NCBI RefSeq assembly: GCF_036669915.1
Contig: NC_089313.1
Span: 1,440,085-1,504,084, forward strand
Direction: 5' to 3'
DNA from: Pocillopora verrucosa
Lineage: Eukaryota; Cnidaria; Anthozoa; Scleractinia; Pocilloporidae
DNA length: 64,000 nucleotides
The notes under the pieces were generated by a model. That model had not been told where the DNA came from and searched no databases. It saw only the letters and a list, made by a program, of their open reading frames with translations. How positions within the stretch are numbered: the stretch's first letter is position 1; the number at the start of each line of letters is the position of its first letter. The translations under genes and the position numbers were made by a program. This document shows positions 2 to 62,387 of the stretch, piece after piece.

Positions 2-716
2 GGACCAGGGGGTCCAGGAGGACCAGGAGGCCCTGGGGGTCCAGGAGGTCCAGGAGGTCCAAATGGTCCTACAACTGCTCCTCCAGGAAAACCCGGAGGA
101 CCTGGAGGCCCCGGGGGACCAGGAGGACCAGGTGGTCCAGGCGGTCCTGGAGGCCCGAAAACGGCTCCACCTGGTCAACCAGGAGGCCCCGGAGGACCGG
201 GTGGTCCTGGAGGCCCAGGGGGCCCTGGAGGACCGGGTGGACCTGGAGGTCCAGGATGTGTCATGCGCCCAGGAGCGAAAACAACACCAAAAAGCGGCCC
301 AACAAAGCCTGGAGGTGCAAAGCCAACAACCGGAAAGCCTTGTATCACTATACCACCAGGTAACGTGATGATCCAGCATTTCAAGGAAACGTTCCTCGAT
401 CTTTAACCTTTCTTATCTTTTGCTTTGCATCAAGTTTATTGTCATTTAACAGTTGTCTTTATAACTCAAAAAACTAAAATGTTTGCAATTGTTCTGTTCC
501 TACGTCTTTTTTGGGTCAAACCGATAACCTTATGGAAGAACTAGTTTATTAAATTATAATACAGAATATAAAAACGACTTTCTACATGAAATAACTGCTT
601 TTATTTTTATATTCGAGGCTTTACTGTCGTGAAGAAACCAACAACTATTCCTACGCGGCCAGTCGGACCATCTGGCCCCACAACAGGACCTGCTGCCACA
701 ACAGCGCCTAACAAAG
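2..716 (+). CDS. Gene A exons 1-2: Gly-Gly-Pro repeat stretch plus Thr/Pro linker
   Basis: Frame 2 is open from base 2 to the donor at 360. It encodes three blocks of (Gly-Gly-Pro)n separated by linkers such as [11 protein letters not shown] and KTAPPGQP, followed by a single Cys and a Lys/Thr/Pro stretch. The repeat runs off the left edge, so more lies upstream. Exon 2 (618-716) continues with a Pro/Thr/Gly linker, and both exons end in phase 1. This is Gly-X-Y spacing with X = Gly, which is unusual for a true collagen. The minus strand reads as Gly-Pro-Pro but hits a stop near 175, so the plus strand, with its matching splice sites, is the coding one. Confidence 0.8.
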
Positions 717-3700
717 GTATTATTATTTTTCTTTTTCTCTTCAGTTGTGATTTAACTTTTAAGTTCAGCTTCATTTAAAAAAATTAATTTCGTCGCATTC
801 CCTTGCTTTTGGCAGCCTTCTCCTCTAACAGTAGTATAGTTACCAAAGATCCTGCTTTGTTTATGTCTCTAATCATACCAACATATTATTCGCACATGGT
901 TTTTGTGGGAAAAAGCCAGGACAAGTAAAATCAAGCAGACTAAACGTTAATATCATTTAACGACAAATTTTGCTGAGACGTAATTAGGAAATTATTTAAA
1001 CAATGCTATGAATTAAAAAAACCGTCGATTGTTCCACAGTGTGCAAAGTTAAGATGGACATTGGCTTCGTAATCGACGCAGCTGGCGGCCTTAAGAAAGT
1101 ATTCCACTTCATAAAGAAATTCGTCTTGGAATTGGTGGATTCCTTTACTGTCTCCAGTCAGAATGTCCGGATTGGTTTAATTACGAACTCGTATCGCCCT
1201 GCAGTCAAGATAAGCTTTGGTCAGTTTAACAAGCCGACGCAAATAAAACGCATCACCCGCCTGCTACAGCCCGACGGTGGAGCACGCCTATCAGGAAAAG
1301 CGTTGACCCTTGCATTAAAGCGGCTCTTTCCCGCTAGCAAGGGCAAGAAAACGTTGGTTTACCTAACTGCGGGTAAATCGTCCGACCGAGTGCTTGGCCC
1401 AGTACAACAGCTTGTTGCTATGGGAGTAAATATCTTCAGTATCGGCGTTGGAACTAATGCTGATCTCAGTGAGATTCTCACGGTAGCTAAAGATCCTCAG
1501 CACTCGTACAAGACCAACTTTAGAGGCCTGGGAACTATAGTGAAACGCATTAAAGACAAAGCATGCGCAGGTTGGTAAGCCTTTCCTGATTTCAGAGGCA
1601 ATTTTGAAGGAGAAATTAAGGAGTGTCAGCAGACAGTCTATCAAAAATGGGCAAACCTGTAGCCCAATGACGTGACGTAACATTTGTCATTGGTAAATTA
1701 GTGGAAGAAGTAAGTACAATGCAAACTAAAAGTGAGTCTCCTAATATTAGCAACAAAGAGTGTTACCAAACGACGGTCGTTTCATAAATACATGTTGGAT
1801 TCTAATCATCACCATAAAAACGCACATTACTTTTAGTAAGATGAATAGAGTCAGATTTTTATATGACTCTCTTGTTTTCCCCCGCAGAGGCAGGAGGCAG
1901 TGAACAGGGACCGAAAAAACCCACTAAGAAACCAAGTAAGTACATGAGCAATTAACATATCGCACATGATTCCAGAGTTCACGTTTAACCCCATTTCGAA
2001 TTTATTAAATTTCCGTATCAACAGAACCACCGAAGGCTGTCGCTATTTTCCCATTGAACCAAAAGACTCGAGGAAAAGACATTGGTCCCCTGAGGAACAG
2101 CCCAGGACTAATATATGGTGTTCGACCCGCTCGTGGACCTAATGGTCAGCCTGGTGGAGCCATCAAATTCCCGAGATTTAAGACCGGCTATGTGGAGTTT
2201 CCGAACAGTGGGAAACTGGACACCAAGAATTCCATAACAGTGACTGCTTGGGTCAAACCGGACGCGCCAGGGAAAATAATTGAGTTCAGACCGAGAGGGG
2301 TGACTTTCGGCATTCGATCGCCGGATATTTTGTACGCTCGTTTTGTCCGCCGTAACGGTCGACCAACCAAAACTGTAAAAACAAGACGACGAGGAGTTAC
2401 CTTGCGACAATGGAGTTACTTAGCCATCACCTATGACCAGCGAACGGGAATGGGAACTATTTGGCGGAACTCTCGACCCATTGCTTTTCAGAAGCTCGGC
2501 TGGATCAGGCTTGCTACAAAGAAACCTCTTAGGCTTGGAGGGTTGACCCGTGGTCGGCGACCATTCAGTGGCAGTATCACGTGTCTTCAAGTTTACAGCG
2601 ATGCTTTGACTGGGCCTCAGATAAAGAATGTACAGAATGTTTGCTTTAAACCAGGTACTAATCACCAACCTCGACGTAAGATATACACTTAAACCAATTG
2701 AATATTGAACAACAATCAACCTGACATTTTGTCCTGATGCTGCTCATTCCAAGCTGCAATTAAACCATTATTTTCAGTTCACCCACCCTCATAGTCTTGG
2801 ATTTGAGAAAGGCCATGAACATAATTACTTGCCATTACGCTAAATTCAAAAATATTTTATCTCTGTCAGTCTTAACAGTGAAGACTGAGGACACACGCTT
2901 TAATTCAAATTCTTAAGTTCTTCATCAAAGTAGGATGGGAATGTAGATATGCGGGCTAAGTTATAGAATATAAAGTAACCAGACACATTTTTTTGGTACA
3001 ACAGCTTTTAAAGATACGGTGTGCTGCAATATTCCAGAATATTTTAGGAGTACGAGACACGCATAGTGTACTTTTAAAAATATACCAGCGAAGTATTCGA
3101 GCATAGTCAAGACGAATACTCCAGGTGTGCGCGGGGTATTGTGCGCGACTCGAATACCCTAGGATTCTAAAGCACCACGATCACGTATTCCATACTCGAA
3201 TACCAGAGATTACTTTGATTTTGCGCAGTGTTAGCCACAGAAATGCATTTGGTTGTTTTATACCATACATATCGCGGGTTAATGTTTTTTATTCTGTTTC
3301 CAGGGCAACCGACTCCCACCAGACCACCAACAGCCCCTGTTCCAGGTAGGAGAGCAATCGACGGATACCACCCAGGAGTTCTTATTTGAACTGATCTATT
3401 TTGAAGTCTAGATTTTATAAAATTTAATCCAAACATAATGTCTTCATCTTGCAAGGGAAGGTTTTTATCTTGGTATAAACACGGTATGACCAATTCAGTA
3501 GCGTTCCAACCTCCTGCACTCCGTCCGCATTTCAGACTGTTAAGCCTTTTATCTTCTTGTTTTAAAGTTTTTGTACTCTGAAAATGATACTGTTGTTGTT
3601 GCATGTTACCAGCTCTACCTCCTGCGATGGCATTCTTCCCCTTGAAGTCTAAATATGGTGCCCGAGATATAAGCCCAACGAAAAACCGTCCGGGAAAAAT

Positions 3701-6700
3701 CGTGGGTGCCTTACCAGCCCGAGGTCCTGACGGCCAGCGTGGTAGTGCTTATAAGTTCCGAGGCCGTCCCGATAGCTTCATCGAGTTTCCGAACAACGGA
3801 CGATTAGATGCAAAGGATTCTATAACCATTCTTGCATATGTAAACCCGGAGAGTGCTGGACCGATCTTCAATTTTAATCCCAAAGGATTTGGAGTGCATT
3901 TCTGGATGGTTCGAAAGAATGTTCTCTTCGCACGCTTTGTGAAAAGGTCCAAGAAGTTTACACGGCCTGTGGCTACGAACAGAGTGAAACCGGGCACTTG
4001 GAACTGGCTTGCAGCTTCATACGATAAGAACACTGGGTACGCACGTTTGTTCGTGGATTCCAAAATCTCAGCTGAAAGAAATCTCGGCAGAATAAAGCTT
4101 GCCACCAATTATCCCGTTAGAATGGGTGCACGAAAGGGAGATCGTCGCTTCTTCCGGGGGAAAATAACTTGTGTTCAAGTTTACAATGAAGCCCTGACAA
4201 GCCGGCAAATCCGAGCCGCGAGAAAGAGCTGCTTCAGACCAGGTTTGTCGCAGACCTATTTAATCTGATTTTAAATTTTATTCAAGGAAAATAGAGTTAC
4301 TTTCACTCTCTCTACACTGTTTTTTCGGAAATAGTATCTCTAATGAGTCTGAATGAGTCGCCAGTCAACATTTTAAGAGCAATAGAGTTTCTCTCTTTTC
4401 CGGTGCAGTCGATTTTACTGCAAGTATTATTACTTCTAGCGCCTCATTATGGCCTTGAAGAGAGTTCCATCGTAAAGAAAATGTTTAAAATGTTTGAATT
4501 AAAACAAAATTATGTGAAACAATGTTAGTTTAAATGTTCATTTTAGACAAGTTTTTATCGAGCGTATTTTCTGTTTCAGGTAAAGTCAAACCCACAAAGC
4601 CAATTTTACCTGTTACCAAACCTACACCGGGTAAGTCTCGTTTCCTTTTTTTTTTTTTTCTACATCATAAAACTTAACAGTTGTAAGAGTCTTAACAAAA
4701 CGTTTCTTTAGGAAAATGTGTAAGATATTTTTGTCCTCTGTTCAAACAGCTATCCGTAACTTGGTGGCCGTGTACCCACTGGACGCTACTTCTGGTGCAC
4801 GTGACCTCAGCCCTACCAAGAATCTTCCAGGAAAGCTTTCGAGTGTAAATATCGCTCCAGGCCCTGACGGCAAACCGGACACTGCATTGCGATTCTCTGG
4901 CAGTCCTAACAGTTACATAGAGTTCCCAAATAATGGAAGACTGGACACCAGGCGTTCAATCACTTGCATAGCATGGGTGTACAATGAAGGAAGGGGAGGG
5001 CCGGTGTTCCAATACGATCCACGTGGAGTGGGGGTTGGGTTAAGAATCATCGGCTTGGATCGAATTGAAGCGCTCATTGTCAGCCGAAACAGACGAAAGA
5101 AAATTCCTGTCGTGACTCGAAAGAGGTTCTTTAAGCCCAGGACTTGGACTTACGTAGGATTCTCGTACGATTTCCTTTCTGGTATTGTCACATTGTACGT
5201 TAATGCCAGGCCAGTCTTACGTAGGATCATTGGTCGAGTTCAGCTTCTTACTAACAAACCAGCCCGCGCGGGCTCAACCAGGCGTGGAAAACGATTCTTC
5301 CGCGGTCGCTTATCGTGTATACAGGTGTACAGCAGAGCTCTGACCAGGCGCGAGATCATTGCAGTGAGAAAAAGGTGCTTCAAAGGAGGTATGATAGGTG
5401 CAACAGAAATTAATTGAAAATGTAAGCCAGATTACCTGCGGGTTAACTTGTATGATAAATCCATGGCCAGTCTGTAGTCTGGTGTTTTTCAAATTGTTTT
5501 CCTCAATAAAATTTAATGAGTGTAATTACATTAATCGTATGCCTTTATTTTACCTTTTTTATTTTGTATAGCATCGAAATAATGTTCAGAGAAATTCAAC
5601 TCAGAAATCAAATCCAGTAACTTAGCAAAATTACGGTAGGAATAAGAAAGAGGCAAAGGAAAAACTGAGTGCAACAAACTTACTTGCACGGATTGATCTT
5701 ACAATACTGTTTAAGTCATTTTGTATCACTTGTTTCTCATTTGCAGCCGGAATAATTCCAGGAAAACCTTCTACAGGTAAGAAGTGAATGTCATTGTTGC
5801 ATAAATCACTCTTCGTTGTTCAGCGATACTTAGATGCGTTAATGTACCTATGATGATTCCAGGTACCCCGACGCCTGTGGCTACATTCCCACTCAGTGGT
5901 GTACTCAGTGGACGGGATATCTCTCCAAATAAGAACCCACGAGCAAAACTCCGTAATGTGCGGCCAGACAACGGACCCGATGGGCTCCCTTCAGGTGCCA
6001 TTAAGTTGAGAGGTAGTCGAGATAGCTATGTGGTGTTTCCAAACTACGGAAAACTGGACACAACGGACGAAATAACGATCACTGTATGGGTGAAGCCCAA
6101 AAGCGCTGGACCAATCTTCCATTATAAGCCCCAATCCTGGGGTGGAGTACATGTCTGGGTTGTAGGACGACCCGGTAATCGAAAGTTTTTCGTCCGATTC
6201 TCCACGCGTAACGGCAAAACTGTTCCAGCACTAAGAAGTAGGAAAATCAAAATGGGACGATGGCATTATCTGGCTGTTACTTACGATAAAAAGAAGGGAG
6301 TTGGAACCATTTGGAGAAATGGCTTCATTGATGCTCAGGTATTACAGACATAACAATAGACTGTTTTCACCAACTTAACACATTTGGACCCATTGTCAGC
6401 AATTAAGGAGAGCGATATGTTCACAGTGGTGATGACAACAGTATCCAGAAAGAAGTCTCGCACACAGAGTTCAATTTCCAACTAAACCTAATTTCTTTGC
6501 TTTTTTTTTGCTGATAGTCGCAGTCTTACGTTTTAGTTTGTTTGTGTTGTTACCTTCGGCTGACTTCTAACCTTCTTTCCAGTACCCTTTCTCATGGAGA
6601 GTAACAGACGCAATAGGTTAATGAACAAAGCAGAGTATCAGTCATTAACAATATCATTTGTTCGCCATTTAGCGCCGTGTTGGAATTTACAAACTCGCCA

Positions 6701-18700: not shown

Positions 18701-21700
18701 TCCACCCGGCAGAAAACTTGGTAAACCCACAGTAATTCTAAAAAGCTTGAAGAATGCGAGAAGGAATTGTCAACGTCTAGCGCGCATGCGCCGCGCGTGG
18801 GCATTTGCTTTGCGGTTTGGTCGTCAGTGCTTTATCGCAAAAAACCATCCTCGCAAATTTCTGAGGTTTGGTCTTCCTCGAACGAAAATGCCTGGTGCCC
18901 TGAAGGTTTACATAGCCAGAGGTAAATACAAGATTGGATGATTTGGAGAGTTATGTGGAAAGTTGTAGCAGTAAAGAATGTTGTGCTTGAGAAAGTAAAA
19001 AAGTAAAGTAAATTTCAAAAGTATCGTAAAAAAGGTTGCCATTTTTCATCATGGTGAATTCACTTGTAATAAATTATGCCCCGCTACACGTTGTTGTCCA
19101 TCAAGAAAGAATGTTGTCTTAATTTCAAACCGCGGATGTAACTTTTACCCCTAATTTCATCCTTCTTCCAGTCTTAAATGATGTCAGTTATGCTGTCAAT
19201 CAAAAAATTAAAATTGACGTCTTCGTTTTTTTTAGGAGCTACCAGCATACTAAAAATTAGACCCAGGCCGAGACCGAGACCTTTACCTCCTCCCAGGCCA
19301 CGACCGAGACCAGGTAAGCAAGTAGGTCTATGTTAATTCCAAATACATAATAAGATATATTTTTCCTTCATTAACCCTTAAATCCCTAAGAGTGACAAGG
19401 TTCTAATTTCTCCTCACAATATCACCAGTGAATCAAATGTTTTAGTTCATGAGAATAAAGGAAATGATCATCTACTAACGAAGCTCTTATTGGTTTTACA
19501 AATTCTCCTTGTTAGAACCTAGGTTATGTATAGGGAGCAGTATGGAGAATATGCATACTGATGTTAGGGTGTAAAGGGTTAATTGTTTAAGAAGAAGCAA
19601 GCAAGCATCGGATGGACGGAGAATCTAAGCAGCTGAATGGGGAACTGATGGAGAGTGAGACCATAAAGAAGTTTAGATGTATTATGTGTCCTTTTAACTG
19701 AAATGAGACTGTTTCAAAGTATCATTGTAGTCATTTGATATTGTGTTTCTTACAGGAGGACGACCTCGAATCAGACCTCGTCCCAGGCCTCGTCCGAGAC
19801 CTCAAATTAGGCCTCGTCCAAGTAAGTTTTGTGTATTAAATTTGGTGCTGAGAAAATCCCGCACAATAAAAATTTGATTTTAAGGAAATTTTGAGAATTT
19901 TTTTTGCAAATTAGATAAGAAACAGAAAGTAAAAAACAAAATGCAACAAAAAAAACGCTTCTAACAAAGGGCTAACGCTCCGAACGTCAGCTTTATTATC
20001 TCTTTACGGTGGCCAATTTACATTATTATCAACCCAGTTGATAGAACTATGTTGTCTTGTAATAACCCCCCCCCTCCCCCCCACTGACGCAGCACCACAG
20101 AGTCGTTAGCAACTTGCTCCCTTTTTTCGTCAGGGCGTAAAAGATATATGTACGTCGGAAGTTACCGTCCACCGCCCAGTCGTATACTCGGACGACCAAT
20201 CATAACATTTAGAAGCAAAGTTAACATACGAAGGAGATGTGAAAAGATAGCAAGAACCGGAAATTACCGAGCATTTGCCCTACGGTACGGTCGACAATGT
20301 TACGTAGCTCGCCTGAAAAGTACGAAGTTTACAAGGTATGGGCGCTGGCGATTGATAAGACCTGGTGCACTCAAGGTCTTTGTAAGCACGACTGGTGAGT
20401 AGCAGACGAACTTTCAATTATTAATTATGCCTTTGCTCCTTTCGCGTTTCCTGAATTCCAAGTTTTTGTTTATCTTTTGATCATCTCAGCAGGTAAACCT
20501 ATACGCCCTCGCCCCAGGCCACGCCCGAGGCCGAAGTTACCAGGTATGGTACATGATCGAGATTTATTCGTCTCCATGAGAGTTCAATGATTTTTATGCG
20601 TAGACAGCTCTCACTCTCGGATACAAGGATAATATTCCATTTCCCATCCATTTTATGGATCAGGTCACTATCTTATTGCTATTTCTTTGAGTAAAAAATT
20701 AAGAATGATGATAAATTTTGAGTTCCATCGTTGATTAAGGAGAGATGTTATCATTTCAAGAGAGATACAATTAAAGTCTGGGTCCCCGCGAGAATTAGAA
20801 CCCAGAATGTTTTAGTTCATGTGTGAATACTCTATGACTGTGTTGCATAAAACCCACTGGTGAGCTAACCCACTCAGTAGGTTCAAATGAAACACGCGCC
20901 CTACTTACTGCTGGGATCAGCCGTGAGGAAAACCTCGTGTGTCTACACCAGATAGTACGTCATTAGGACTATCGTTGAATAAATACAGAAGTCAGCATTG
21001 TTAAAAGCGTGGAACAAATACTTTTCTCTTTTGCCAACAAATACTGACACCTCTGAACTGCTTGCGTTGTTCTGCATCATCTTGAATCTGAACAGCAGAG
21101 GTTGAATGTCATTGATTCTAGGAAGAAGATTTGTGCCTAAATACATCGGAAGGTACCGCACTCCTCGTAGATTGGGAAGAGCTGTCCGCACTTTCAGACG
21201 ACGTTCGTCCGCTCTACGGAACTGCTACCGCTTGGCTCGAGCACGAAGGGCGAGAGCATTTGCTGTCCGTGCCGGAGTAAGCTGCTACTTATCTAAAATG
21301 ACGTCGGTCAAGTTTACAAGGCTCGGAAGGACTCGAGTAGGGGGCCTCAAAGTTTACGTGATAAAGAGAGGTGGGTGCTACTTCTTAAGATCAATAGTTT
21401 GTCAGGTTAAACAGATGACCGACTAGCCTTTATTGTTGCAAACAACACGAATCATCGCGCATTCCTCCAGAACAAAAAAATTATTGGCCTAACGTTCCAG
21501 TTGTCGTGTAACTCAGCTGTCTCCAAGTAGTACAACGCAAACTATTCCCCGGGTTCTATGATAAAAAATGGATTTCTTTATTGTCTGTCATGATCGTGAC
21601 AACATATTGGAGATATTTTTATTCCAGTAATTGCTGCGCTAAGTGAGGTGGCCAAAGATTTCTATTGTGAGACAACGTGGTTTAGCAAAAACCTGGAGAT

Positions 21701-24700
21701 GGTTCTGATGATTTCTACCTTACATAAGTGACAATCTGTGCTGTTAAGGCTTGAAGCCGTGCCTGTCTACGTGTTATGTATAAATGCACAAAGAAATAAA
21801 TGCCATCATTTACAACTTCAGGTACATCTAGGCCCCGGCCTCGACCCAGGCCGTCGCGACGCTTATGGAACTATCGTCGCCTCGGTACATACAAAGTACC
21901 ACGGGGCCGTTCATCTCCAGGCCGCAGATACTTAGGCACGGTCAGACCCAGATTAAACCCCGCCAAGCAGTGCGCTATCATGGCGCGAAAGGCAAGATAT
22001 CGCTATTTCGGAGTACGAAGCAGACGCTACTGCTATGGAGCAAGCTTACGTTCACCACTGACAAGATTTGGAAAAACGTTTGGTGTTGGAGGAATGGTTG
22101 TTTACAAGATTGGAAGAGGTGAGCTATGAAAACTCTGGATCTCCGGTTTCAACGGCAGAACTGAAAAACGTTTGCGCATGTCACGAACTTCCAAAGCAAT
22201 AGCATACCTTGATTAACATGGCGACATTTTTAAAAAAGTGAAAAGCGTTGATACCCTCTATTCACAACAAGTGTTGTTGTGGAAACTTAAACAAACTAAT
22301 ATCCCTGGGACTGCTTAAGCCAAATGTCGACGAATTTGCTGCTCAGCTATCACAAAATGTAATTTTTCGCTCGAAAGACAACAGTTTTTACCTAAATTTA
22401 GGCAATTGTTTCAGGATAAAAATGTGATTTTCAATAGAAAGTCAAAGGAAGATTTACAACGAAAGAATTGAGCCCAACATCTCCACTAACTCAGTGAAGT
22501 GTTGCTGTTGTTTCTGCATAGCCTCGCGCAAACATTCTATCGACTTGCTGTTTGAGTCGTAAACATTTTCCGACGTGAAACTGTAAGTGTAAGCTTTATG
22601 ATAGAACTCACTGAAGAATAAATTATGTTTATGTGACCTGCAGGGCGTCTGAGACCTAGGCCAAAGACAACAGTGTGGCATTATCGATACGTCGGCCGCT
22701 ACAAATCACCCACTTCAACGCGTTTGGGTCGATTTATTGGAAGGATGAGAGGGAAAACGAAAGTGTTTGAATGTGCACGGCGTGCCAAAAGGATGGGATA
22801 CCGTGCATTTGCTTTGCGCAACCGAGGAGATTGTTACGTGTCAAGATACTCGTCAACTTACTCCACTAAACCTAGGGTGTTTGGGCGCTTCATGGCGAGC
22901 ACTGGTGGACCGCGTGCTATAGATGCTTATGTGATCAGGAAAGGTAAGATACAGCGTAAAAAAGCTAAGCTTTTGAGAATTGAATGCTGATTAGGGTGGA
23001 TACAGTGCGGTTGAAGCTCCTAGGTAATCCTTTGATGGTGAGCCATTCAAAAATTGATGGCACTGCAAAAAAGTTGTGACGTCTTTATCGTCGGTGCCTG
23101 CTCAGTAATTACACAGACATCGGATAGGACCTTAAGCTACTTTTATTGACAGAAATACCGGACAGAAATGTAAAGAGATCTTATTGATTTATTCAGCATA
23201 ACGTCGAATTAGCCGTAATAAACTGCCTTTTAACCCCATTCATCGATGAGCATCAAATCAAACATGTCAGTAAGCCCTATTTACGAGACTCTACCTTGTG
23301 ATTGGTCTCACTCAATTTTCGTTTGCTTTATTAAGGTCGTTTCAAGCCTCGCCCCAGGCCTCGTAAAGGAGGCTTTGCCTGGCATTACCGTTGGTTGGGA
23401 CGATTCAGATCGCTAAAAGGAAGAGGTTTGGGCACGAAAATAGGTAGAGTGACAGGGAGAAAGAAGGTGTTCAGCTGCGCTCTCTTAGCAAAACGCCGAG
23501 GTTTCAAAGCATTCGCTTTACGTCGGAATGGAATCTGCTACGGAACTCGATCATCTAGAACGTATGCAACCAAACCCATAATCAAGGGTCGCTTCAGAGC
23601 TGGCGCAGGAGGATCACGTTTCATTGATGCTTACATGATAGGGAAAGGTATGTGATACAGCCGCGACCCTTGATCGTAGTGAAATACTTTCGTCAAGTTT
23701 CTTCTTAAAAATAAAAACTTCACCCTTGCTACCCCCAAGTACTGTAAGTATTGTAATTTTCACCCATATTGAGCGGTCGTGGTCATCCTTCACTGACTCC
23801 CAACGGCCAGTTTGTATTGTCTAACGCATATTGGGAACGATAGCTCAACGCCGAACTACTCAAATAAACTAAGGATAATCTCTCAAGTAGAATTTAAACC
23901 ATGTTTATCTCCCGGAATCAGTGTCAGTACTTTAAGTTCAAATGTCCCCACGCATTGCAGATTGCCTTTCTTTTTTGGACATACTACGCATTAACATCAC
24001 GGTCAAACTGTATTAAGTGGTCAGTCTGTATTAAACGGTCGCCATTCCTCAAGGTTGACCGCTTGATAGAGGTTTGACTGCAATGGTTTTGTTACCTGTT
24101 CTGTAACTTCATCATGATAATTATTCTTTTGTAGGTCATTACAGACGACCATTGAGAAAAGGCAAGTTGTACATTTGCTATGGTTCTCTTTGATTTAAAT
24201 AACGGTTTGTTGATGATTTTTAACCAACACACCTGTTAGGCCCGACAGGCTTTGGCAAAACTACAGCCATTGATATGTTTCAAGTCTTGCACACTTCAGC
24301 TCTCTTCAGTGACTTTCGTTTCGGGTGAGGAAACCTGGTTCAGCGCTTAAGGTCGAGAGCTCACAGATTAATCGTCAGGCGACAACTTAAAACTCCTCAC
24401 GTAGAAACTTATCAGGATAAAGGAAACGAAAACAGGAAAAAAAAAACGACAAGAAAAAATGTTTACTCTTTTAATTTCGTCTCACCCAGAAACTTACCAA
24501 CATGCCTCGACCTCATGTGCTCGACCCTGTTTTACACGCGGCCTAACATAAGGCACATGATCCTTTGATAATGTAAGTGACTGATCACTAGTCACTAGTA
24601 CATTAATCTTTGATCAAATGCCATAAATAAGCTTGCCCATGTTTATTTTTGCAGGAGTTAAGGGTCGCTCTCGGAAAGCAAGACAACGAAAGCGAATGAA

Positions 24701-27626
24701 GCAAATAAGAGCTGTAAGGAGAAGAGTGAGACGAACTAAGAGAAAGCAGCGGCGAGTGGCAAAAACTAGAAAACTGAAATTTAGAATAATAAAACGAATC
24801 AGACTGCTGAAGGTTTTGAAGAGGAAGGTGATCCGAGTTGTTGTACGGGTCCGTCGTTTGAAACGACTGGGGAACATAAAACGCCTCAGGTTGGCAAGAA
24901 AAGCAAAAATTGTCTTGGTTAAAAGAGTGCGAAAAATGAAGAGGAAAATACAGACACGCAAGTTAAGACTCAAACTACGATTAGCGCGATTGAAGGCAGC
25001 AAAACATCGAGCTAGAATCCAGCGAGCTAGACGACGGGCCATGAGGTTGTTGCGATTCAGAATGAAGCAGCGCATGCGGAGATTGAAGTTACTTGCTCAG
25101 CAGAGGAGGGCTCGTGCCCTTCGAATAGCCAGGCTGAAACGTCTGAGGCGATATCGTCAGTTAGCCATGCTGCGCGCACGTCAAAGAGCGCAAGCAGCGC
25201 GCATGAGACTGTTGATAAGGCAAAGGATGCTTCAAATCAAGCGGAAACTAGCTCTGAGACAAAGAATACTCAGATCAAGATACCTGAGGAGACGACAAAG
25301 AACGTCGAGACTACGTATCCAGGCGTTTAGGGTCAAAGCTCGTCAACGAAGAGCAAGACAGCAGCTTTCAGTTCTAAGGAAACAGTTGGTCAATGTGGCG
25401 AAGAGGATGGTGTACTACAGGAAATATCGGCAATACAGATATTTGATGATGATGCGAGCCCAGAGGCGACAGCTGATGAAACGAGCGAGTAATGCTCGAG
25501 TCCGTTGGTTCCGATATCAGAAACAGCTACAGGAGAACAGACGCAGACAGCGCATGCTCGTGCTCAGACAACAGCGAGCGAACAAGAGCTTCAGGCAGTT
25601 CCAAAGGAAAAAGAGATTGTTGTTTGCGCAACAACAGCAGAAACTGAGAAAACTCATACAACGGATGAAGAGTACGCGTCGAGTACGAGGTGCGTATCTT
25701 ATTTTTTAATGGATTGTTTATTTATTTGGTCAGCTTTTGCCGACTGAAAAAAAAATCTTGCGTAACAGAGAAATAGAGGTTTTTCTGAGGTGCCTCTCTT
25801 TAGCGAGGTGCCACTGCTTATAACATACTAATATTACCTATCATAGTGCACGACTTAGCTTCACTTTGTTATGTAAAAATTGCAGTTGGAAAGAAGAGAG
25901 GAGACATTCTCAAGAAAAAGCCCTCGATGACAAGTTTGAATAGCAAGAAAGTTAAAGAAGCCAATACTGGTAAGATAATGTAAAGCGACTCCAATGATGA
26001 GTTCCGCTCAGGTTGTCGAAACGTCAGTCAACACAATCGACAACAGTCCTACTCAAGACTACCCTCACCTGGATGAACAGACCACGCGATCAAAGACAAT
26101 AATATTATCACAAATTTAAAAATCACAGAATGGCTTCATTTCGAAACGAAATCTCGGTCCCTCGTATCCAGAACATTTGTCAGTAAATTAAACCGTACGC
26201 ATGATAGCCCATAACCTACATCATACATTATGGCCTCTCTGTAAGTTGTAGCGAACTTATCCGAGATGAGATCAAACTGAAAGTTGTTGGGACGCGATAA
26301 CGGACCGGAATTTAGAGAGACAACAGTAAATGAGAAAATAGAGTCAAGTTAAGTCATATTTATTTAGGCAGGGTGGCCATTTCAGCAATAGGCTGGTATC
26401 AACAAGGGCCCTAATCAGATAATTCCCTAACTACTATACCAATGATTTACCAGACCAAGGGGAAGAAGCTAAGCCACAAGTATTTAGAATTCGTTTATTC
26501 TTTCTCCCCTCAGCAGTTCCCAAAGAGTTTCAGTCAGCTGATTTTTTCTGGTCGTTTGAAGATGCATCGGGCGCGTACATATCCCATGATACTGTTCAAA
26601 AGCGTCCAGCGCGGCTCATGGGAGGATCACGAGTTGTCCCAGAGACCGAACGGGGTCTGGTGGCCAGCACTGGTAAAGCAAGAGGATGGATCTCTCTCGG
26701 AGACTTTACAGGTGATAAGGAGAGAGAAATAATATATCAACCAAAGGAAAATTTTGGATTAAACGCAAAATTTTTATAGCTAAACTTTAAGAAAAATATG
26801 ACAGATATTACAGAAAATTGACATTTAGATTGTTTTTCTCGTTAAGTGTTATCACTCTATCTCGCCAGGAAAATGCTTCAGCGATCCAGACCAATGTAGA
26901 GATCACGGAATGACAATGATGACTTCGCTTAAACTTGACAAGAAATACTTCCACAAGAAATCCAGCTCGTATTTCTTGTCCAGCGGAGGTCAGACCACCC
27001 AGGCCCGAGGCTTCGCTCTCCTTCATATTCTAAACCGCTACATCCTCATACTCAGCACAAAAAATAACCAGTGGAAGTTGGAAACACGTGACCTTCCAGA
27101 TGGATGGTTCAACATTGCCTTTTCCTGGGAGAAGAAGGGTTTACTTAAGCTGTATGTAAACGGAAAGGAAGTGTCTAGGGGAGAAGCTATGAGTGTTTCA
27201 AGACCGAAGGATTCTTTCTCCACGTTGCAAGTTGGACGACCAAACAATTCTCACTCTCCAAAGTTTAGAGTACCGCTGGAAATGGATAATATTGCTCTCT
27301 GGGAGAGAGCTCTCTCGAGCAAGGAGATAGGCGCCTTGGCTGATAAGGGTAAGAATCGGGCGTCAAACGTGCAAAATCGTGCCAAAATTATCCTCGAGTT
27401 TTAGTGAAAGATCATCCCTAAGTGATTTGTTACGTGACTGCAATAAATTTTGTGCATTACAACACGTACATTTTTCGCAGAATCTTTCCATATGCAAGTT
27501 GCTAATTTATTTAATTCCCATCCTCTGTACGAGTTATCGCCATAATTAATTAGTAGTCAAGCCCACTTTATTTCTTTCCGATTAGATTTGAAGACAACTT
27601 CCAAAACAAAGGAAAAGAAAGATTGA
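2..27626 (+). CDS. Giant cationic modular secreted/ECM protein (gene A), 5'-partial, 47 exons
   Basis: No named homologue is recognised. Exons: 2-359, 618-716, 1040-1570, 1888-1935, 2025-2654, 3304-3345, 3613-4242, 4580-4630, 4750-5388, 5747-5776, 5863-6338, 6673-6838, 7082-7114, 7470-8096, 8550-8609, 9059-9697, 10148-10204, 10330-10980, 11303-11347, 11494-12132, 12694-12753, 12841-13473, 13833-13874, 14357-14528, 14986-15341, 15516-15548, 15782-15823, 16322-16855, 17204-17248, 17749-18012, 18129-18254, 18459-18500, 18667-18921, 19236-19313, 19756-19821, 20134-20394, 20493-20543, 21122-21370, 21822-22118, 22644-22943, 23336-23647, 24136-24162, 24655-25689, 25886-25969, 26517-26711, 26869-27348, 27586-27626. 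They sum to 12,531 nt, exactly 4,177 codons including TGA, with no internal stop. Introns are GT-AG except one GC-AG, and nearly all are phase 1. The module order suggests a secreted matrix, mucus or capsule protein (inference). The start lies upstream of the window. Introns over 300 bases not listed separately show nothing I recognise. Confidence 0.9.
1040..1570 (+). CDS. Gene A exon 3: VWA domain 1
   Basis: One phase 1-1 exon encodes a ~177-residue von Willebrand factor A fold. It opens with [16 protein letters not shown], has the central [13 protein letters not shown] and [14 protein letters not shown] strands, and ends [10 protein letters not shown]. Family VWAs bind Mg2+ through DxSxS plus downstream Thr and Asp. 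Here DxSxS reads D-A-A-G-G and the Asp of the usual LTDGKS is Ala, so metal binding is probably lost. The flanking Cys residues are the usual domain-closing pair. Confidence 0.9.
2025..2654 (+). CDS. Gene A exon 5: LamG-like domain 1
   Basis: A single phase 1-1 exon of 630 nt encodes a concanavalin-A-like/laminin G jelly roll. Repeat hallmarks are [44 protein letters not shown] and [13 protein letters not shown], with two C-terminal Cys (ITCLQV and NVCFKPG). The domain is unusually rich in Arg and Lys. It is preceded by a 48-nt linker exon at 1888-1935. Confidence 0.9.
3613..4242 (+). CDS. Gene A exon 7: LamG-like domain 2
   Basis: This 630-nt phase 1-1 exon shares its layout with domain 1: [63 protein letters not shown] and VQVYNEALT. 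Linker exons flank it at 3304-3345 (Pro/Thr-rich) and 4580-4630 (Lys/Pro-rich). It is strongly basic in the second half. Confidence 0.9.
4750..5388 (+). CDS. Gene A exon 9: LamG-like domain 3
   Basis: This 639-nt phase 1-1 exon carries [43 protein letters not shown] and [10 protein letters not shown]. The loop that normally carries a conserved Trp before the central strand instead reads GLRIIGLDR. The start at 4750 is set by the CAG acceptor and the phase 1 donor at 4631. Next comes a 30-nt linker exon at 5747-5776. Confidence 0.9.
5863..6838 (+). CDS. Gene A exons 11-12: LamG-like domain 4 (split by an intron)
   Basis: This is the only one of the nine LamG copies interrupted by an intron, a phase 0 intron at 6339-6672 after FIDAQ. 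Exon 11 carries [22 protein letters not shown] and [13 protein letters not shown]. Exon 12 resumes with [13 protein letters not shown] and ends [13 protein letters not shown] and KCFRR. The split is best explained by intron gain in this copy, since the other eight are intronless within the domain. Confidence 0.88.
7470..8096 (+). CDS. Gene A exon 14: LamG-like domain 5
   Basis: This 627-nt phase 1-1 exon carries [50 protein letters not shown] and [10 protein letters not shown]. The acceptor at 7468-7469 and the preceding 33-nt linker exon (7082-7114, Lys/Pro) fix the start. Longer open frames reaching upstream of 7470 are intron read-through. Confidence 0.9.
8757..8829 (+). tRNA. tRNA-Lys (anticodon CTT), intronic copy 1
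   Basis: The 73-nt cloverleaf has acceptor GCCCGGC pairing with GTTGGGC, A-box TAGCTCAGTCGGTAGAGC, anticodon loop CTCTTAA, B-box GGTTCGAGCCC and discriminator G. A run of five T follows at 8839-8843. It lies in the intron between gene A exons 15 and 16, on the same strand. Confidence 0.95.
9059..9697 (+). CDS. Gene A exon 16: LamG-like domain 6
   Basis: This 639-nt phase 1-1 exon carries [49 protein letters not shown] and [14 protein letters not shown]. It is among the more divergent copies; its GRDISP-like motif is degraded. Both flanking introns contain an identical tRNA-Lys gene. Confidence 0.9.
9995..10067 (+). tRNA. tRNA-Lys (anticodon CTT), intronic copy 2
   Basis: Its sequence is identical over 73 nt to the copy at 8757, but the flanks differ, so this is not simply a recent large duplication. 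A T run follows at 10078-10082. It lies in the next intron, between exons 16 and 17. Confidence 0.95.
10330..10980 (+). CDS. Gene A exon 18: LamG-like domain 7 with Arg-rich loop
   Basis: At 651 nt this is the longest LamG exon. It carries [50 protein letters not shown] and [13 protein letters not shown]. The extra length is an Arg/Lys run ([14 protein letters not shown]) in the loop after the ARF strand, which also creates multibasic sites of the kind proprotein convertases cut. The domain is phase 1-1. Confidence 0.9.
11494..12132 (+). CDS. Gene A exon 20: LamG-like domain 8
   Basis: This 639-nt phase 1-1 exon carries [45 protein letters not shown] and [14 protein letters not shown] linker exon at 11303-11347 (Arg/Pro/Gly) precedes it. 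The fold is conserved but much of the surface is Arg/Lys. Confidence 0.9.
12841..13473 (+). CDS. Gene A exon 22: LamG-like domain 9
   Basis: This 633-nt phase 1-1 exon carries [49 protein letters not shown] and [13 protein letters not shown]. The conserved SYD motif has become VYN. A 60-nt linker exon (12694-12753) precedes it and a 42-nt linker (13833-13874) follows, ending the LamG block. Confidence 0.9.
14357..15341 (+). CDS. Gene A exons 24-25: VWA domain 2 (split by a phase 2 intron)
   Basis: Exon 24 (14357-14528) begins [18 protein letters not shown] and breaks at FGFYS. Exon 25 (14986-15341) continues [38 protein letters not shown] and ends VQRKACAG. DxSxS reads E-S-G-R-I, so the primary metal-site Asp is gone. 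The intron between them holds a repeat (14577-14854). An upstream acceptor-like CAG at about 14950 would break frame with exon 24 and is not used in this model. Confidence 0.85.
14577..14854. repeat. MITE-like element in the VWA2 intron
   Basis: The ends GACCGGTCA and TGACTGGTC form imperfect terminal inverted repeats. Inside are G-run and C-run segments (GGGGGTGGGGGGTCGGAGG and CCCCCCTTCCCCC) that pair as larger imperfect arms. No coding capacity is visible. The class is uncertain. Confidence 0.45.
15980..16260. repeat. Probable interspersed repeat in the intron before VWA3
   Basis: This intron segment has a sequence texture that I associate from memory with repeats of coral genomes, but no internal repeat or TSD proves it here. 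It has no coding potential. Confidence 0.25.
16322..16855 (+). CDS. Gene A exon 28: VWA domain 3
   Basis: This single 534-nt phase 1-1 exon begins [19 protein letters not shown] and contains [43 protein letters not shown] and IKEKACKG. It keeps more of the metal-site motif (D-A-S-A-K) than domains 1 and 2, but the second Asp (usual TDGKS) is Ser. Linker exons 15516-15548 and 15782-15823 precede it, and 17204-17248 follows. Confidence 0.9.
17341..17607 (+). mobile_element. tRNA-derived SINE-like element
   Basis: A B-box-like GGGTTTGAGTC lies at 17358-17368, followed by a body typical of invertebrate SINEs: TGTTCTTTGGCGAGACACTTC, then a CTCTCCCCACCCAGG block, then an AAATGGGTAC block. It lies in the intron before the first two-Cys module. 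The 3' end is indistinct and no TSD was identified. Confidence 0.5.
17749..18012 (+). CDS. Gene A exon 30: basic two-Cys module, copy 1
   Basis: This phase 1-1 exon is the first of seven homologous ~85-100-residue modules. It opens [11 protein letters not shown], has a helix-like stretch with the first Cys (RRICERIA), the core [13 protein letters not shown], and a final strand [11 protein letters not shown]. The pattern C-x(n)-FA(V/L)xxGxxC resembles a short domain common in cnidarian secreted proteins alongside LamG and VWA, but here it is very Arg-rich. I cannot assign a named family. Confidence 0.8.
18129..20543 (+). CDS. Gene A Arg-Pro linker exons (31, 32, 34, 35, 37)
   Basis: Exons 18129-18254, 18459-18500, 19236-19313, 19756-19821 and 20493-20543 sit between the two-Cys modules. 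They encode near-pure Arg-Pro dipeptide runs, for example [16 protein letters not shown] and [17 protein letters not shown]. Each is phase 1-1, so each can be skipped without a frame change. Such sequence is expected to adopt extended polyproline-II rods carrying a high positive charge. Exon 37 has a NAGNAG acceptor (ctcagcag, 20485-20492). Confidence 0.85.
18667..18921 (+). CDS. Gene A exon 33: basic two-Cys module, copy 2
   Basis: This phase 1-1 exon encodes [11 protein letters not shown], then [10 protein letters not shown], the core [13 protein letters not shown], and ends [11 protein letters not shown]. It aligns to copy 1 across its full length. Arg and Lys dominate, and I see no acidic residue in the core. 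Confidence 0.82.
19371..19582. mobile_element. TTAA-ended MITE copy (212 bp)
   Basis: It starts TTAACCCTTAAATCCC and ends GGGTGTAAAGGGTTAA, an inverted pair. The interior CTAATTTCTCC and GAGAATATGCATACTGATG blocks recur in other copies of the window. It is the only clear copy inside gene A. Confidence 0.7.
20064..20083. repeat. Poly-C tract in an intron
   Basis: A low-complexity run of C with single interruptions lies upstream of the exon 36 acceptor. It is likely a homopolymer of variable length. Confidence 0.7.
20134..20394 (+). CDS. Gene A exon 36: basic two-Cys module, copy 3
   Basis: This phase 1-1 exon encodes [21 protein letters not shown], the core [13 protein letters not shown] and [12 protein letters not shown]. 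It closely resembles copy 2. Confidence 0.82.
21122..21370 (+). CDS. Gene A exon 38: basic two-Cys module, copy 4
   Basis: This phase 1-1 exon encodes [24 protein letters not shown], the core [13 protein letters not shown] and [11 protein letters not shown]. It is preceded by a 578-base intron in which I see no element I am confident of. Confidence 0.82.
21822..22118 (+). CDS. Gene A exon 39: basic two-Cys module, copy 5, fused to its linker
   Basis: This is the first copy in which an Arg-Pro linker ([14 protein letters not shown]) and the module share one exon. It then reads [24 protein letters not shown], the core [13 protein letters not shown] and [11 protein letters not shown]. It is phase 1-1. 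Intron loss between linker and module is the likely origin. Confidence 0.82.
22644..22943 (+). CDS. Gene A exon 40: basic two-Cys module, copy 6
   Basis: This exon carries a short RLRPRPKTT linker, then [20 protein letters not shown], the core [13 protein letters not shown] and [11 protein letters not shown]. With copy 7 it forms a subfamily having a longer loop ([11 protein letters not shown]) and the GGPRAID ending. Confidence 0.82.
23336..23647 (+). CDS. Gene A exon 41: basic two-Cys module, copy 7
   Basis: This exon carries linker [12 protein letters not shown], then [22 protein letters not shown], the core [13 protein letters not shown] and [11 protein letters not shown]. It is the closest match to copy 6, suggesting a recent tandem duplication of the last two modules. 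Confidence 0.82.
24136..24162 (+). CDS. Gene A exon 42: 27-nt microexon before a GC-AG intron
   Basis: The microexon encodes HYRRPLRK plus split codons and is phase 1-1. Its donor is GCAAGT rather than GTAAGT, after a consensus AAAAG exon end. Without it the neighbouring exons still join in frame, so it may be optional. Confidence 0.6.
24655..25689 (+). CDS. Gene A exon 43: ~345-residue Arg/Lys/Leu/Gln helix region
   Basis: This single 1,035-nt phase 1-1 exon has no Pro, no Cys, no Asp and one Glu that I can find. In 50-residue stretches I counted, Arg plus Lys make up about 38-56%. The rest is mostly Leu, Ile, Val, Ala, Gln and Met with Tyr/Phe toward the end. Spacing such as [19 protein letters not shown] suggests a long cationic amphipathic or single alpha-helix. 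It follows a GTTTATTTTTGCAG acceptor and ends at GTGCGT. It could bind polyanions such as nucleic acid, sulphated glycans or polyglutamate (inference). Dibasic sites are so dense that it could alternatively be cut into peptides. Confidence 0.85.
25886..25969 (+). CDS. Gene A exon 44: Lys-rich linker
   Basis: This 84-nt phase 1-1 exon encodes [27 protein letters not shown]. It links the cationic helix to the C-terminal LamG domain and is where acidic residues reappear. Confidence 0.8.
25991..26114 (+). mobile_element. Retroelement 3'-tail fragment (probable)
   Basis: The block around CGCTCAGGTTGTCGAAACGT and the following CACCTGGATGAACAGACC segment resemble a 3' tail that I recall as common among interspersed elements in cnidarian and other invertebrate genomes. 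It is not coding here. It lies in the intron before exon 45. Confidence 0.4.
26517..27348 (+). CDS. Gene A exons 45-46: C-terminal LamG-type domain of normal charge
   Basis: Exon 45 (26517-26711, after a CAGCAG tandem acceptor) reads [26 protein letters not shown] and [10 protein letters not shown]. Exon 46 (26869-27348) continues [58 protein letters not shown] and [15 protein letters not shown]. It is a jelly-roll lectin/LamG fold of a type unlike the nine basic copies, with normal acidic content. It may be the ancestral end of the gene and the ligand-binding module. Confidence 0.88.
27586..27626 (+). CDS. Gene A exon 47: terminal exon
   Basis: It encodes the last residues [12 protein letters not shown] and stops at TGA 27624-27626, after an ATTAG acceptor in phase 1. 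No transmembrane segment or GPI-type tail is present, which supports a secreted product. I see no clear AATAAA within the next 200 bases. Confidence 0.75.
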
Positions 27627-62052: not shown

Positions 62053-62099
<47 letters not shown>

Positions 62100-62387
62100 T
62101 GATAATAATAATAATAACAATGACAATAAATAATAATGACCACTTTAATATTTTGGAGTATAACATACCTATGGGAACTTTTCATTTCTTATTTGTGTGC
62201 TCTGTGGTCAACTAAATTTTTTTGGGATATATTTTTCAGGCCTCCAAAACCAAGATCAGCATGCTCAGCTCAGGGATGTACAAACCTGAAGAAATATTCA
62301 TGTTCTAGTAATAATCTGCCAGTTTGCAGCATGGCATGTTACAAGAAGGTTCAACTGATTCCTCGGCAAACCGCAACTGCAGTCTAA
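57198..62387 (+). CDS. INO80B: INO80 complex subunit B, 10 exons, complete
   Basis: Exons: 57198-57237, 58014-58239, 58763-58854, 59626-59686, 60037-60139, 60735-60792, 61239-61342, 61550-61612, 61918-62033, 62240-62387; 1,011 nt, 336 residues, no internal stop. The N-terminus is Lys/His-rich (KKKHKHKHKKHKKKK), followed by VTLKIKLGGE, an acidic Ser/Glu stretch, and the PAPA-1-type coiled basic region (EEAQRRRKQRAKKRKQQMQ to TQTVKKLLDREATRSRKEEEK). The C-terminus is a HIT zinc finger: CSAQGC, YSC, VCSMAC. In other animals this is a core accessory subunit of the INO80 nucleosome-remodelling ATPase in the nucleus. Exon 7 begins at the acceptor TTTCAG 61238; upstream ORF sequence there is intron. 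MITEs litter its introns. Confidence 0.92.
58893..59104. mobile_element. TTAA-type MITE in an INO80B intron
   Basis: It starts TTAACCCTTTAACTACCATG and ends CTGGGAGTGAAGGTGGTAA. The interior ATTTCTCTCTATAATATTATC block is shared with other copies, and the inverted ends are mildly diverged. Confidence 0.7.
59164..59375. mobile_element. TTAA-type MITE in an INO80B intron, inverse of the 51073 copy
   Basis: It starts TTGACCCTTTAACTTCTGAG and ends CTGGGAGTTTAAGGGTTAA. The interior CAGCTGCTACACATTT and mirrored blocks show it is the 51073 element in the opposite orientation. Only about 60 bp separate it from the copy at 58893. Confidence 0.8.
60342..60545. mobile_element. TTAA-type MITE in an INO80B intron
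   Basis: It starts TTAACCCTTTACACCTTAAC and ends CGTGTTAAAGGGTTA. The interior TGCATATTCTCCATACTG and GTAAGGAGAAATTAGATG blocks match the 19371 copy in inverse orientation. Confidence 0.75.
62054..62138. repeat. AAT trinucleotide microsatellite
   Basis: A long run of ATA/AAT repeats with a few ACAATG interruptions lies in the last INO80B intron. Confidence 0.95.

What the first reader, a model, noticed from the sequence alone, without database searches (positions are those of the whole stretch)
2..27626. A >4,100-residue, pervasively Arg/Lys-rich mosaic of GGP repeat, VWA, LamG and two-Cys modules
Forty-seven exons splice in frame into one cationic protein. The individual domain types are well known in cnidarian secreted proteins, but there they are usually neutral or acidic. 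Here nearly every module and linker has been shifted to Arg/Lys, which implies selection for charge. The partner could be a polyanion such as mucus glycans, nematocyst polyglutamate, bacterial surfaces or acidic skeletal proteins (inference).
Basis: partly seen in the sequence, partly recalled or inferred. Interest (0 to 1): 0.8.

Follow-up and report, generated by a model that had tools for sequence, protein, structure and literature searches.

The report
Giant, intensely positively charged modular protein
An animal gene predicts a giant modular secreted-type protein in which almost every building block has become strongly positively charged, probably so that it can hold on to negatively charged polymers; no experiment has tested this yet.

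Summary
Positions 2-27404 (+ strand) give 47 exons in one open frame: 4,199 residues, 950 Lys/Arg against 140 Asp/Glu, net +810, with the 5' end outside the window. 44 of 46 introns are phase 1. Modules: GGP repeat, VWA, 9 LamG_3, 2 VWA, 7 two-Cys modules, a 345-residue helix-forming block (104 Arg, 42 Lys, 1 Glu), and a last LamG that is hardly shifted (+12 over 244 residues).

New here: (1) the two-Cys modules look like WSC/PAN domains reduced to one of four disulphides; the pair sits 20 residues apart in 7 of 7, as in yeast Wsc1. (2) Charge density rises from N to C terminus, and N-glycosylation sequons are scarce (3 against 16.0 in shuffles). (3) Neighbouring ORFs and some solved homologues are near neutral; base composition does not explain the bias.

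Most likely it is a secreted structural polycation that cross-links polyanions. Giant cationic glue proteins (flatworms) and alkaline octocoral skeletal proteins are already known. Species, expression and partner are unknown; paralogues could not be searched. New variant of a known kind.

The parts
2..359 (+). exon 1 (5'-truncated): GGP repeat then Lys/Pro/Thr linker with 2 Cys
   Evidence: mixed synonymous codons in the repeat
618..716 (+). exon 2, K/P/T linker
1040..1570 (+). exon 3, VWA 1
   Evidence: Pfam VWA E 5.5e-25
1888..1935 (+). exon 4, linker
2025..2675 (+). exon 5, LamG 1
   Evidence: Laminin_G_3 E 4.6e-17; 9 of 9 LamG match
3304..3345 (+). exon 6, linker
3613..4242 (+). exon 7, LamG 2
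   Evidence: Laminin_G_3 E 1.7e-17
4580..4630 (+). exon 8, linker
4750..5388 (+). exon 9, LamG 3
5747..5776 (+). exon 10, linker (short, weaker)
5863..6838 (+). exons 11 (5863-6338) and 12 (6673-6838), LamG 4 split by a phase-0 intron
7082..7114 (+). exon 13, linker
7470..8096 (+). exon 14, LamG 5
8550..8609 (+). exon 15, linker
9059..9697 (+). exon 16, LamG 6
10148..10204 (+). exon 17, linker
10330..10980 (+). exon 18, LamG 7
11129..11347 (+). exons 19 (11129-11158) and 20 (11303-11347), linkers (weaker)
11494..12132 (+). exon 21, LamG 8
12694..12753 (+). exon 22, linker
12841..13473 (+). exon 23, LamG 9
13833..13874 (+). exon 24, linker
14357..15341 (+). exons 25 (14357-14528) and 26 (14992-15341), VWA 2, phase-2 intron
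   Evidence: Pfam VWA E 2.4e-26
15516..15823 (+). exons 27 (15516-15548) and 28 (15782-15823), linkers
16322..16855 (+). exon 29, VWA 3
   Evidence: Pfam VWA E 1.7e-36
17204..17520 (+). exons 30 (17204-17248) and 31 (17491-17520), linkers
17749..18012 (+). exon 32, two-Cys (WSC/PAN-like) module 1
   Evidence: alignments A3/A4; Cys spacing 20
18129..18500 (+). exons 33 (18129-18254) and 34 (18459-18500), Arg-Pro linkers
   Evidence: exon 33 codons
18667..18921 (+). exon 35, two-Cys module 2
19236..19821 (+). exons 36 (19236-19313) and 37 (19756-19821), (RP)n linkers
20134..20394 (+). exon 38, two-Cys module 3
20490..20543 (+). exon 39, (RP)n linker
21122..21370 (+). exon 40, two-Cys module 4
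21822..22118 (+). exon 41, two-Cys module 5 with RP lead-in
22644..22943 (+). exon 42, two-Cys module 6 (the one modelled)
   Evidence: Pfam WSC E 0.034, 14.8 bits against cut-off 27.8; model; Foldseek
23336..23647 (+). exon 43, two-Cys module 7
24655..25689 (+). exon 44, 345-residue Arg/Lys block (R 104, K 42, E 1, D 0, P 0), predicted long helices
25886..25969 (+). exon 45, Lys-rich linker (acceptor moved by hand from 25808)
   Evidence: phase 1-1
26514..27404 (+). exons 46 (26514-26711) and 47 (26869-27404), C-terminal LamG, near neutral; TAG stop, AATAAA at 27442
   Evidence: Laminin_G_3 E 3.1e-10

Best explanation
One gene encodes a giant secreted structural protein that acts as a polycation. 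Shown by sequence: a chain of extracellular-type modules (VWA, LamG_3, WSC/PAN-like) on phase-1 exons, joined by Pro-Lys/Pro-Arg linkers, with charge density rising from the GGP end (about +0.07 per residue) to an almost purely basic helix-forming block (+0.42), few acidic residues and few N-glycan sites, capped by an ordinary LamG. Inferred: it is secreted; the modules serve as rigid, non-metal-dependent beads carrying positive charge; GGP and proline-rich parts are extended spacers; the molecule condenses with and cross-links extracellular polyanions (poly-gamma-glutamate or chondroitin of a stinging capsule, sulphated mucus glycans, or acidic skeletal/adhesive proteins) by many weak ionic contacts, the R/K block gripping most tightly. 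The site is open. If the animal is a cnidarian, the stinging capsule is one good candidate beside skeleton, glue and mucus (inference).
For: 47 exons in one frame, net +810, pI 11.9; 44 of 46 introns phase 1. VWA 3 of 3 over the Pfam cut-off, LamG_3 9 of 9 matched. Charge is not compositional: expected K+R 0.115-0.138 and D+E 0.060-0.070, observed 0.226 and 0.033. Controls near neutral: 5 solved VWA segments (collagen VI, mussel PTMP1) -0.052 to +0.006 per residue against +0.107 to +0.167 for the three VWAs here; 2 solved LamG parts -0.055 and +0.023; 3 of 4 bacterial LamG matches -0.046 to -0.020, the fourth (111 nt) not used; 14 downstream ORFs, chosen by me from 27 listed beyond 28 kb, +0.011, and the 5 of the carboxypeptidase gene -0.001. 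(RP)n and GGP repeats use mixed synonymous codons, as for old protein-level repeats. Net charge of the 7 two-Cys modules is 24-29, less variable than permuted columns (24 of 2000). N-to-C charge gradient over exons 1-44, rho 0.72. Sequons 3 against 16.0 +/- 3.7, 0 of 2000 shuffles as low. Published setting: capsule proteins with LamG3 and mention of WSC (PMC6134521, passages) and vWA/WSC domains (PMC5566210, passages); cationic tubules and anionic outer material in jellyfish nematocytes (PMC4595111, passages); heparin stops flatworm attachment, which its authors ascribe to masking of a cationic cohesive protein (PMC9229212, passages).
Against: No transcript, proteomic, expression or species data. 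Secretion is inferred; the N-terminus is outside the window. LamG net charge is not held constant beyond permutation (704 of 2000), and the gradient within 8 of the 9 LamGs is not significant (rho 0.50, p 0.21), so much of the gradient is a difference between module types. Sequon scarcity is inflated by kinship among repeats. The C-terminal LamG is hardly shifted. R/K exon: synonymous codon usage does not favour its frame over the other two (0.034, 0.046, -0.013), and it was not recovered whole by the neutral-trained finder. The two-Cys profile found no WSC chain in the PDB by sequence; its 9 listed hits are all exosome DIS3/Rrp44 at E 0.21-0.40, read as chance. Charge controls are not from cnidarian members of these families.
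Confidence: 0.5

Rival explanations
1. The positive charge is an old trait of this LamG/WSC-like family in the lineage, inherited by duplication, and says little about selection on this gene; charged paralogues exist elsewhere in the genome.
For: The 9 LamGs are paralogues (the other eight 34-45% identical to the first), all basic, so a basic founder copied many times would suffice; LamG charge is not held constant beyond permutation (704 of 2000).
Against: Three different folds (VWA, LamG, WSC/PAN), the linkers and the R/K block are all basic in one gene, while its last LamG and the neighbouring ORFs are not. Two-Cys modules keep net charge more constant than permuted columns (24 of 2000).
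Confidence: 0.25
2. It is an antimicrobial or microbe-agglutinating secreted protein: lectin-like LamG and WSC folds plus cationic, PR-rich and helical segments bind bacterial surface polyanions.
For: (RP)n linkers and a cationic helical block resemble host-defence peptides (resemblance recalled); 202 dibasic pairs.
Against: The R/K block shows no amphipathic periodicity at 100 degrees: mean helical moment 0.71 against 0.76 in shuffles, 228 of 300 shuffles as high. A scaffold of at least 475 kDa is unusual for this role (general knowledge). The Pfam scans of the modules named no defence domain; the defence library was not searched.
Confidence: 0.12
3. It is specifically a skeletal or adhesive matrix protein (octocoral axis, scleractinian skeleton, pedal disc glue), not a stinging-capsule protein.
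For: 9 of 24 octocoral-only skeletal proteins have pI above 9 (PMC7853314, passages) and octocoral skeletal collagens recombine with VWA and laminin G (PMC11959691, passages); a coral skeletal protein carries three VWA domains with TSP-1 (PMC4890752, passages); two VWA collagens are upregulated in an anemone pedal disc (PMC6626399, passages); flatworm glue proteins are giant and cationic.
Against: No expression or proteome data, species unknown; no acidic mineral-binding stretch is present in the model.
Confidence: 0.3
4. The model joins two or more genes, or the R/K exon is not coding, and the giant is partly an artefact.
For: No transcript; the R/K exon's donor (GAG|GTGCGT) looks weak and the frame could instead end at TAA 25707; the exon is only partly recovered by a neutral-trained finder.
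Against: Unforced phase-1 chain across all module types; by eye no start or signal-peptide exon lies between the R/K block and 26514, whereas the next gene shows one near 33989 (by eye, no predictor run); the R/K frame has 0 stops in 344 codons against 37 and 9 in the other frames, and 0 of 5000 simulations reach this length.
Confidence: 0.1

Closest known systems
Flatworm adhesive/cohesive proteins (Mlig-ap1, Tmed-ap3)
   Same: Giant secreted polycations; cohesion proposed to rest on positive charge, and heparin stops attachment (PMC9229212, passages).
   Different: There the charge sits in low-complexity GRK/GRKHS repeats; here mostly in VWA, LamG and WSC/PAN-like modules plus one helical block.
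Octocoral skeletal organic-matrix proteins, including scleritin and collagen/VWA/laminin G recombinants
   Same: VWA and laminin G domains joined to collagens (PMC11959691, passages); 9 of 24 octocoral-only proteins with pI above 9 (PMC7853314, passages).
   Different: No protein of this size, module order or charge appears in the passages read; supplements were not read.
Nematocyst structural proteins with LamG3 (NSP1, NSP2/nb012) and vWA/WSC capsule proteins
   Same: Same domain types in a compartment rich in polyanion (PMC6134521, PMC5566210, passages).
   Different: NSP2 has a single LamG3 and NSP1 has TSP1 plus LamG3; their charge was not compared here.
Collagen VI alpha-3 VWA arrays and mussel PTMP1
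   Same: Best solved VWA matches; several collagen VI domains also lack metal-site residues; PTMP1 domains share the terminal Cys pair.
   Different: The five segments measured are near neutral or acidic.
WSC domain (yeast Wsc1, Kremen)
   Same: Top fold match of the two-Cys module; Cys spacing of 20 equals Wsc1 C49-C69.
   Different: 6 of 8 Cys lost; 189 K/R against 6 D/E over 7 modules.

Membership tests
WSC domain (PF01822) | Pfam WSC profile score above the gathering cut-off | tested here: not met
   2 of 7 modules match at E 10 or better, best E 0.021 (bits not shown); exon 42 scores 14.8 against 27.8 bits
WSC domain (PF01822) | eight conserved Cys forming four disulphides (PMC9024836, passages) | tested here: not met
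   2 Cys in 7 of 7 modules; the residue at the Wsc1 C53 position, read off by spacing, is Ala in 7 of 7
WSC domain (PF01822) | PAN/Apple fold with helix tied to strand beta-4 | tested here: inconclusive
   For: AlphaFold model pLDDT 72.6, pTM 0.64; Foldseek top hits Wsc1 E 4.3e-3 prob 1.00, Kremen and HGF below; Cys spacing 20 in 7 of 7. Against: none of 152 matches at E 0.001 or better, loose fit (TMq 0.56, rmsd 8.5), and no WSC chain by sequence profile
VWA domain (PF00092) | Pfam VWA score above cut-off | tested here: met
   3 of 3, E 5.5e-25, 2.4e-26, 1.7e-36
VWA domain (PF00092) | intact MIDAS metal site (DxSxS, T, D; motif recalled) | tested here: not met
   by eye, 0 of 3 modules keep all positions; several collagen VI domains lack them too, so it does not exclude the family
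Laminin_G_3 (PF13385) | Pfam match | tested here: met
   9 of 9 in the array at E 0.01 or better plus the C-terminal one, E 3.1e-10
Collagen | Gly-X-Y triple-helix repeat recognised by Pfam | tested here: not met
   exon 1 gives no Pfam match at E 1; GGP has Gly every third residue, but low complexity and truncation limit the test
Nematocyst structural protein | expression in cnidocytes / presence in capsule proteome | not testable with these tools
   no transcriptome, proteome or named species
Giant cationic bioadhesive protein | secretion from adhesive glands | not testable with these tools
   N-terminus outside the window, no expression data

The most novel reading that the evidence does not exclude
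A whole multidomain extracellular protein has been recoded into a graded polyelectrolyte: three different folds and nearly all linkers converted to net positive charge, WSC/PAN modules stripped to one disulphide, N-glycan sites purged, and charge density ramping toward a nearly acid-free 345-residue helical grip, so that the chain is in effect a folded-domain polycation brush for organising an extracellular polyanion.
Probability: 0.35. Interest if true: 0.75.

Novelty: new variant of a known kind. Interest (0 to 1): 0.56.

Why it matters
If real, it shows that a natural modular protein of over 4,000 residues can be pushed to net +810 while VWA and LamG folds remain recognisable, a natural counterpart of engineered supercharged proteins. 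It would also supply a concrete polycation to test as partner of poly-gamma-glutamate, sulphated mucus or acidic skeletal proteins.

Tried and rejected
Exon chaining with a low exon penalty gave 133 exons with many tiny pieces and was rejected. A search for further phase 1-1 exons of 15-300 nt inside introns found none over the threshold.

One LamG (exon 21) as a single protein found no relative in viral contigs (2 pattern matches, none confirmed) or genome contigs (46, none confirmed), none among phages, and two weak bacterial records among plasmids. The other LamGs, the VWAs and the two-Cys modules were not used as single queries. So family reach is unknown; no animal genome collection is searchable here.

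Solved structures by sequence: one LamG (exon 7) found only chance-level matches (3, best E 0.15); the LamG profile reached PTX3 and other LamG/pentraxin folds (34 matches up to E 1, best E 4.3e-6); the two-Cys profile found only DIS3/Rrp44 at E 0.21-0.40 (9 of 9); the R/K block found nothing. NCBIfam gave nothing for the R/K block, two two-Cys modules and one LamG (0 of 4). The R/K block's fold was not searched because arrangement confidence is low (pTM 0.28).

MIDAS loss as a consequence of the charge shift: considered and not adopted, because collagen VI domains also lack these residues. Amphipathic antimicrobial helix for the R/K block: not supported. Acidic reading in another frame of the R/K exon: expected from AGA/CGA codons out of frame, and that frame holds 9 stops. 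A stricter sequon pattern gave 2 instead of 3.

Literature: 10 answered searches; none listed a paper that I recognised as describing this architecture. This covers open-licence PMC papers only. Ten papers were seen as passages, none whole; the rest only as listings.

Full report
What was checked. The finding claims one cationic protein of more than 4,100 residues, from 47 exons, over 2-27626 of the + strand. I rebuilt the gene with an exon-chaining script (splice-site scores plus codon log-odds). One search gave 52 exons over 1-34000; I kept 45 unchanged, adjusted two and dropped five. The result is 47 exons, 4,199 residues, 950 K+R, 140 D+E, net +810, calculated pI 11.9 and 475 kDa, with the 5' end beyond the window. 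Introns have a median of 315.5 nt, and 44 of 46 are phase 1, the usual pattern of shuffled extracellular modules (established knowledge). Because the codon model was trained on this gene, I repeated the chaining with a model from 7 near-neutral downstream ORFs: 39 of 47 exons were exact at penalty 9 and 32 of 47 at penalty 7, and the R/K exon came back only in one or three fragments.

Ends. The last exon reads to TAG 27402-27404 with AATAAA at 27442. Exon 45 joins the R/K block to the last LamG in phase. The next gene appears to begin near 33989 with a signal-peptide-like start (judged by eye); SUEL lectin domains lie on both sides of that point.

Modules. Three VWA domains score E 5.5e-25, 2.4e-26 and 1.7e-36. 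All nine LamG modules of the array match Laminin_G_3, and the C-terminal one matches at 3.1e-10. The seven two-Cys modules match Pfam WSC only weakly (2 of 7, best E 0.021; the one score shown is 14.8 against 27.8 bits). An AlphaFold model of exon 42 with the other six as alignment (pLDDT 72.6, pTM 0.64) has the yeast Wsc1 WSC domain as its top Foldseek match (E 4.3e-3, probability 1.00), followed by a glyoxal oxidase, then HGF/PAN and Kremen structures. None of the 152 matches reached E 0.001 and the superposition is loose (TMq 0.56, rmsd 8.5). A sequence profile of the seven found no WSC chain in the PDB, only DIS3/Rrp44 at E 0.21-0.40. In Wsc1 the helix is tied to strand beta-4 by C49-C69 and C53-C71 (PMC9024836, passages). 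In all seven modules the two Cys are 20 residues apart, the C53 position is Ala, and the C71 position is V, L, I or G. I read them as WSC/PAN domains reduced to one core disulphide; they fail the sequence definition of WSC.

Charge. Net charge per residue is 0.107-0.167 in the VWAs, 0.122-0.188 in the nine LamGs, 0.240-0.325 in the two-Cys modules and 0.420 in the R/K block. The last LamG has only 0.049. Base composition would give K+R 11.5-13.8% and D+E 6.0-7.0%. Controls are near neutral: five solved VWA segments and two solved LamG parts, three of four bacterial LamG matches, and 14 downstream ORFs chosen from the 27 of at least 100 residues beyond 28 kb (+0.011; some hold non-coding ends; single ORFs reach +24 in 180 residues). 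None of these controls is a cnidarian LamG, VWA or WSC. The LamGs keep acidic residues in six columns that are acidic in most copies, while the two-Cys modules have 6 acidic residues in 646.

Is it selection on charge? Net charge of the two-Cys modules varies less than when residues are permuted within columns (variance 3.8 against 19.1, 24 of 2000 as low), as stabilising selection on charge would give; the same test on LamG is not significant (704 of 2000). Charge density rises along exons 1-44 (rho 0.72), over 18 unsplit module exons (rho 0.80; split modules left out) and over 21 linkers (rho 0.65), but not significantly within 8 LamGs (rho 0.50, p 0.21). Sequons N-x-S/T number 3 against 16.0 +/- 3.7 in exon-wise shuffles, although related repeats are not independent; the 14 downstream ORFs hold 38 in 3,026 residues. 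Repeats such as RP and GGP are written with mixed synonymous codons, arguing against fresh microsatellite growth.

R/K block. 344 full codons have no stop, against 37 and 9 stops in the other frames, and none of 5,000 Markov simulations was open this long (longest 220). Synonymous codon use does not distinguish the frame. Its composition is R 104, K 42, L 44, Q 36, A 30, E 1, with no D or P. Folded alone it is predicted as three long helices (pLDDT 80.7, pTM 0.28), without an amphipathic period at 100 degrees or any family or PDB sequence match.

How it probably works. The metal sites of the VWAs look lost (motif recalled), so metal-dependent ligand binding is unlikely. The simplest reading is a secreted polycation whose folded beads and proline-rich spacers present charge, ending in a very basic grip, that condenses with extracellular polyanions. 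Published settings fit this: jellyfish nematocytes stain with cationic tubules and anionic outer material (PMC4595111, passages); capsules carry LamG3, vWA and WSC proteins (PMC6134521, PMC5566210, passages); octocoral skeletons carry alkaline proteins and VWA/laminin G collagens (PMC7853314, PMC11959691, passages); flatworm glue uses giant cationic proteins, and heparin stops attachment (PMC9229212, passages). A sea anemone matrisome paper (PMC12549020, passages) places 176 of 551 matrix genes in the cnidocyte lineage but the passages named no match to this protein. Which setting applies is open, and the animal is not named.

Novelty. The domains are known and giant cationic secreted proteins are known. 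Charge spread through VWA, LamG and stripped WSC/PAN modules is what I did not find in ten literature searches of an open-licence library. I call it a new variant of a known kind.

Noticed in passing
8757-8829 and 9995-10068 (+): Two tRNA-Lys(CTT) genes lie in consecutive introns of this Lys/Arg-rich gene, on its strand; they match base for base across the shared body, flanks are unrelated and T runs follow both. Probably coincidence, but curious.
   Followed up: partly
31326-31841, 34795-35495, 40057-40689 (+): SUEL galactose/rhamnose lectin domains in a neighbouring gene or genes; a signal-peptide-like start lies near 33989, and long ORFs follow to about 45781 without a Pfam match in the two that were scanned.
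   Followed up: partly
48568-56020 (+): Multi-domain zinc carboxypeptidase gene (Peptidase_M14 in the two ORFs scanned), resembling carboxypeptidase D (name recalled), near-neutral in charge.
   Followed up: no
57986-58240 (+): Short ORF rich in Lys/His runs, no Pfam match at E 0.01; possibly a nuclear protein of another gene (guess).
   Followed up: no
62053-62137 (+): (AAT)n microsatellite of about 28 copies.
   Followed up: no
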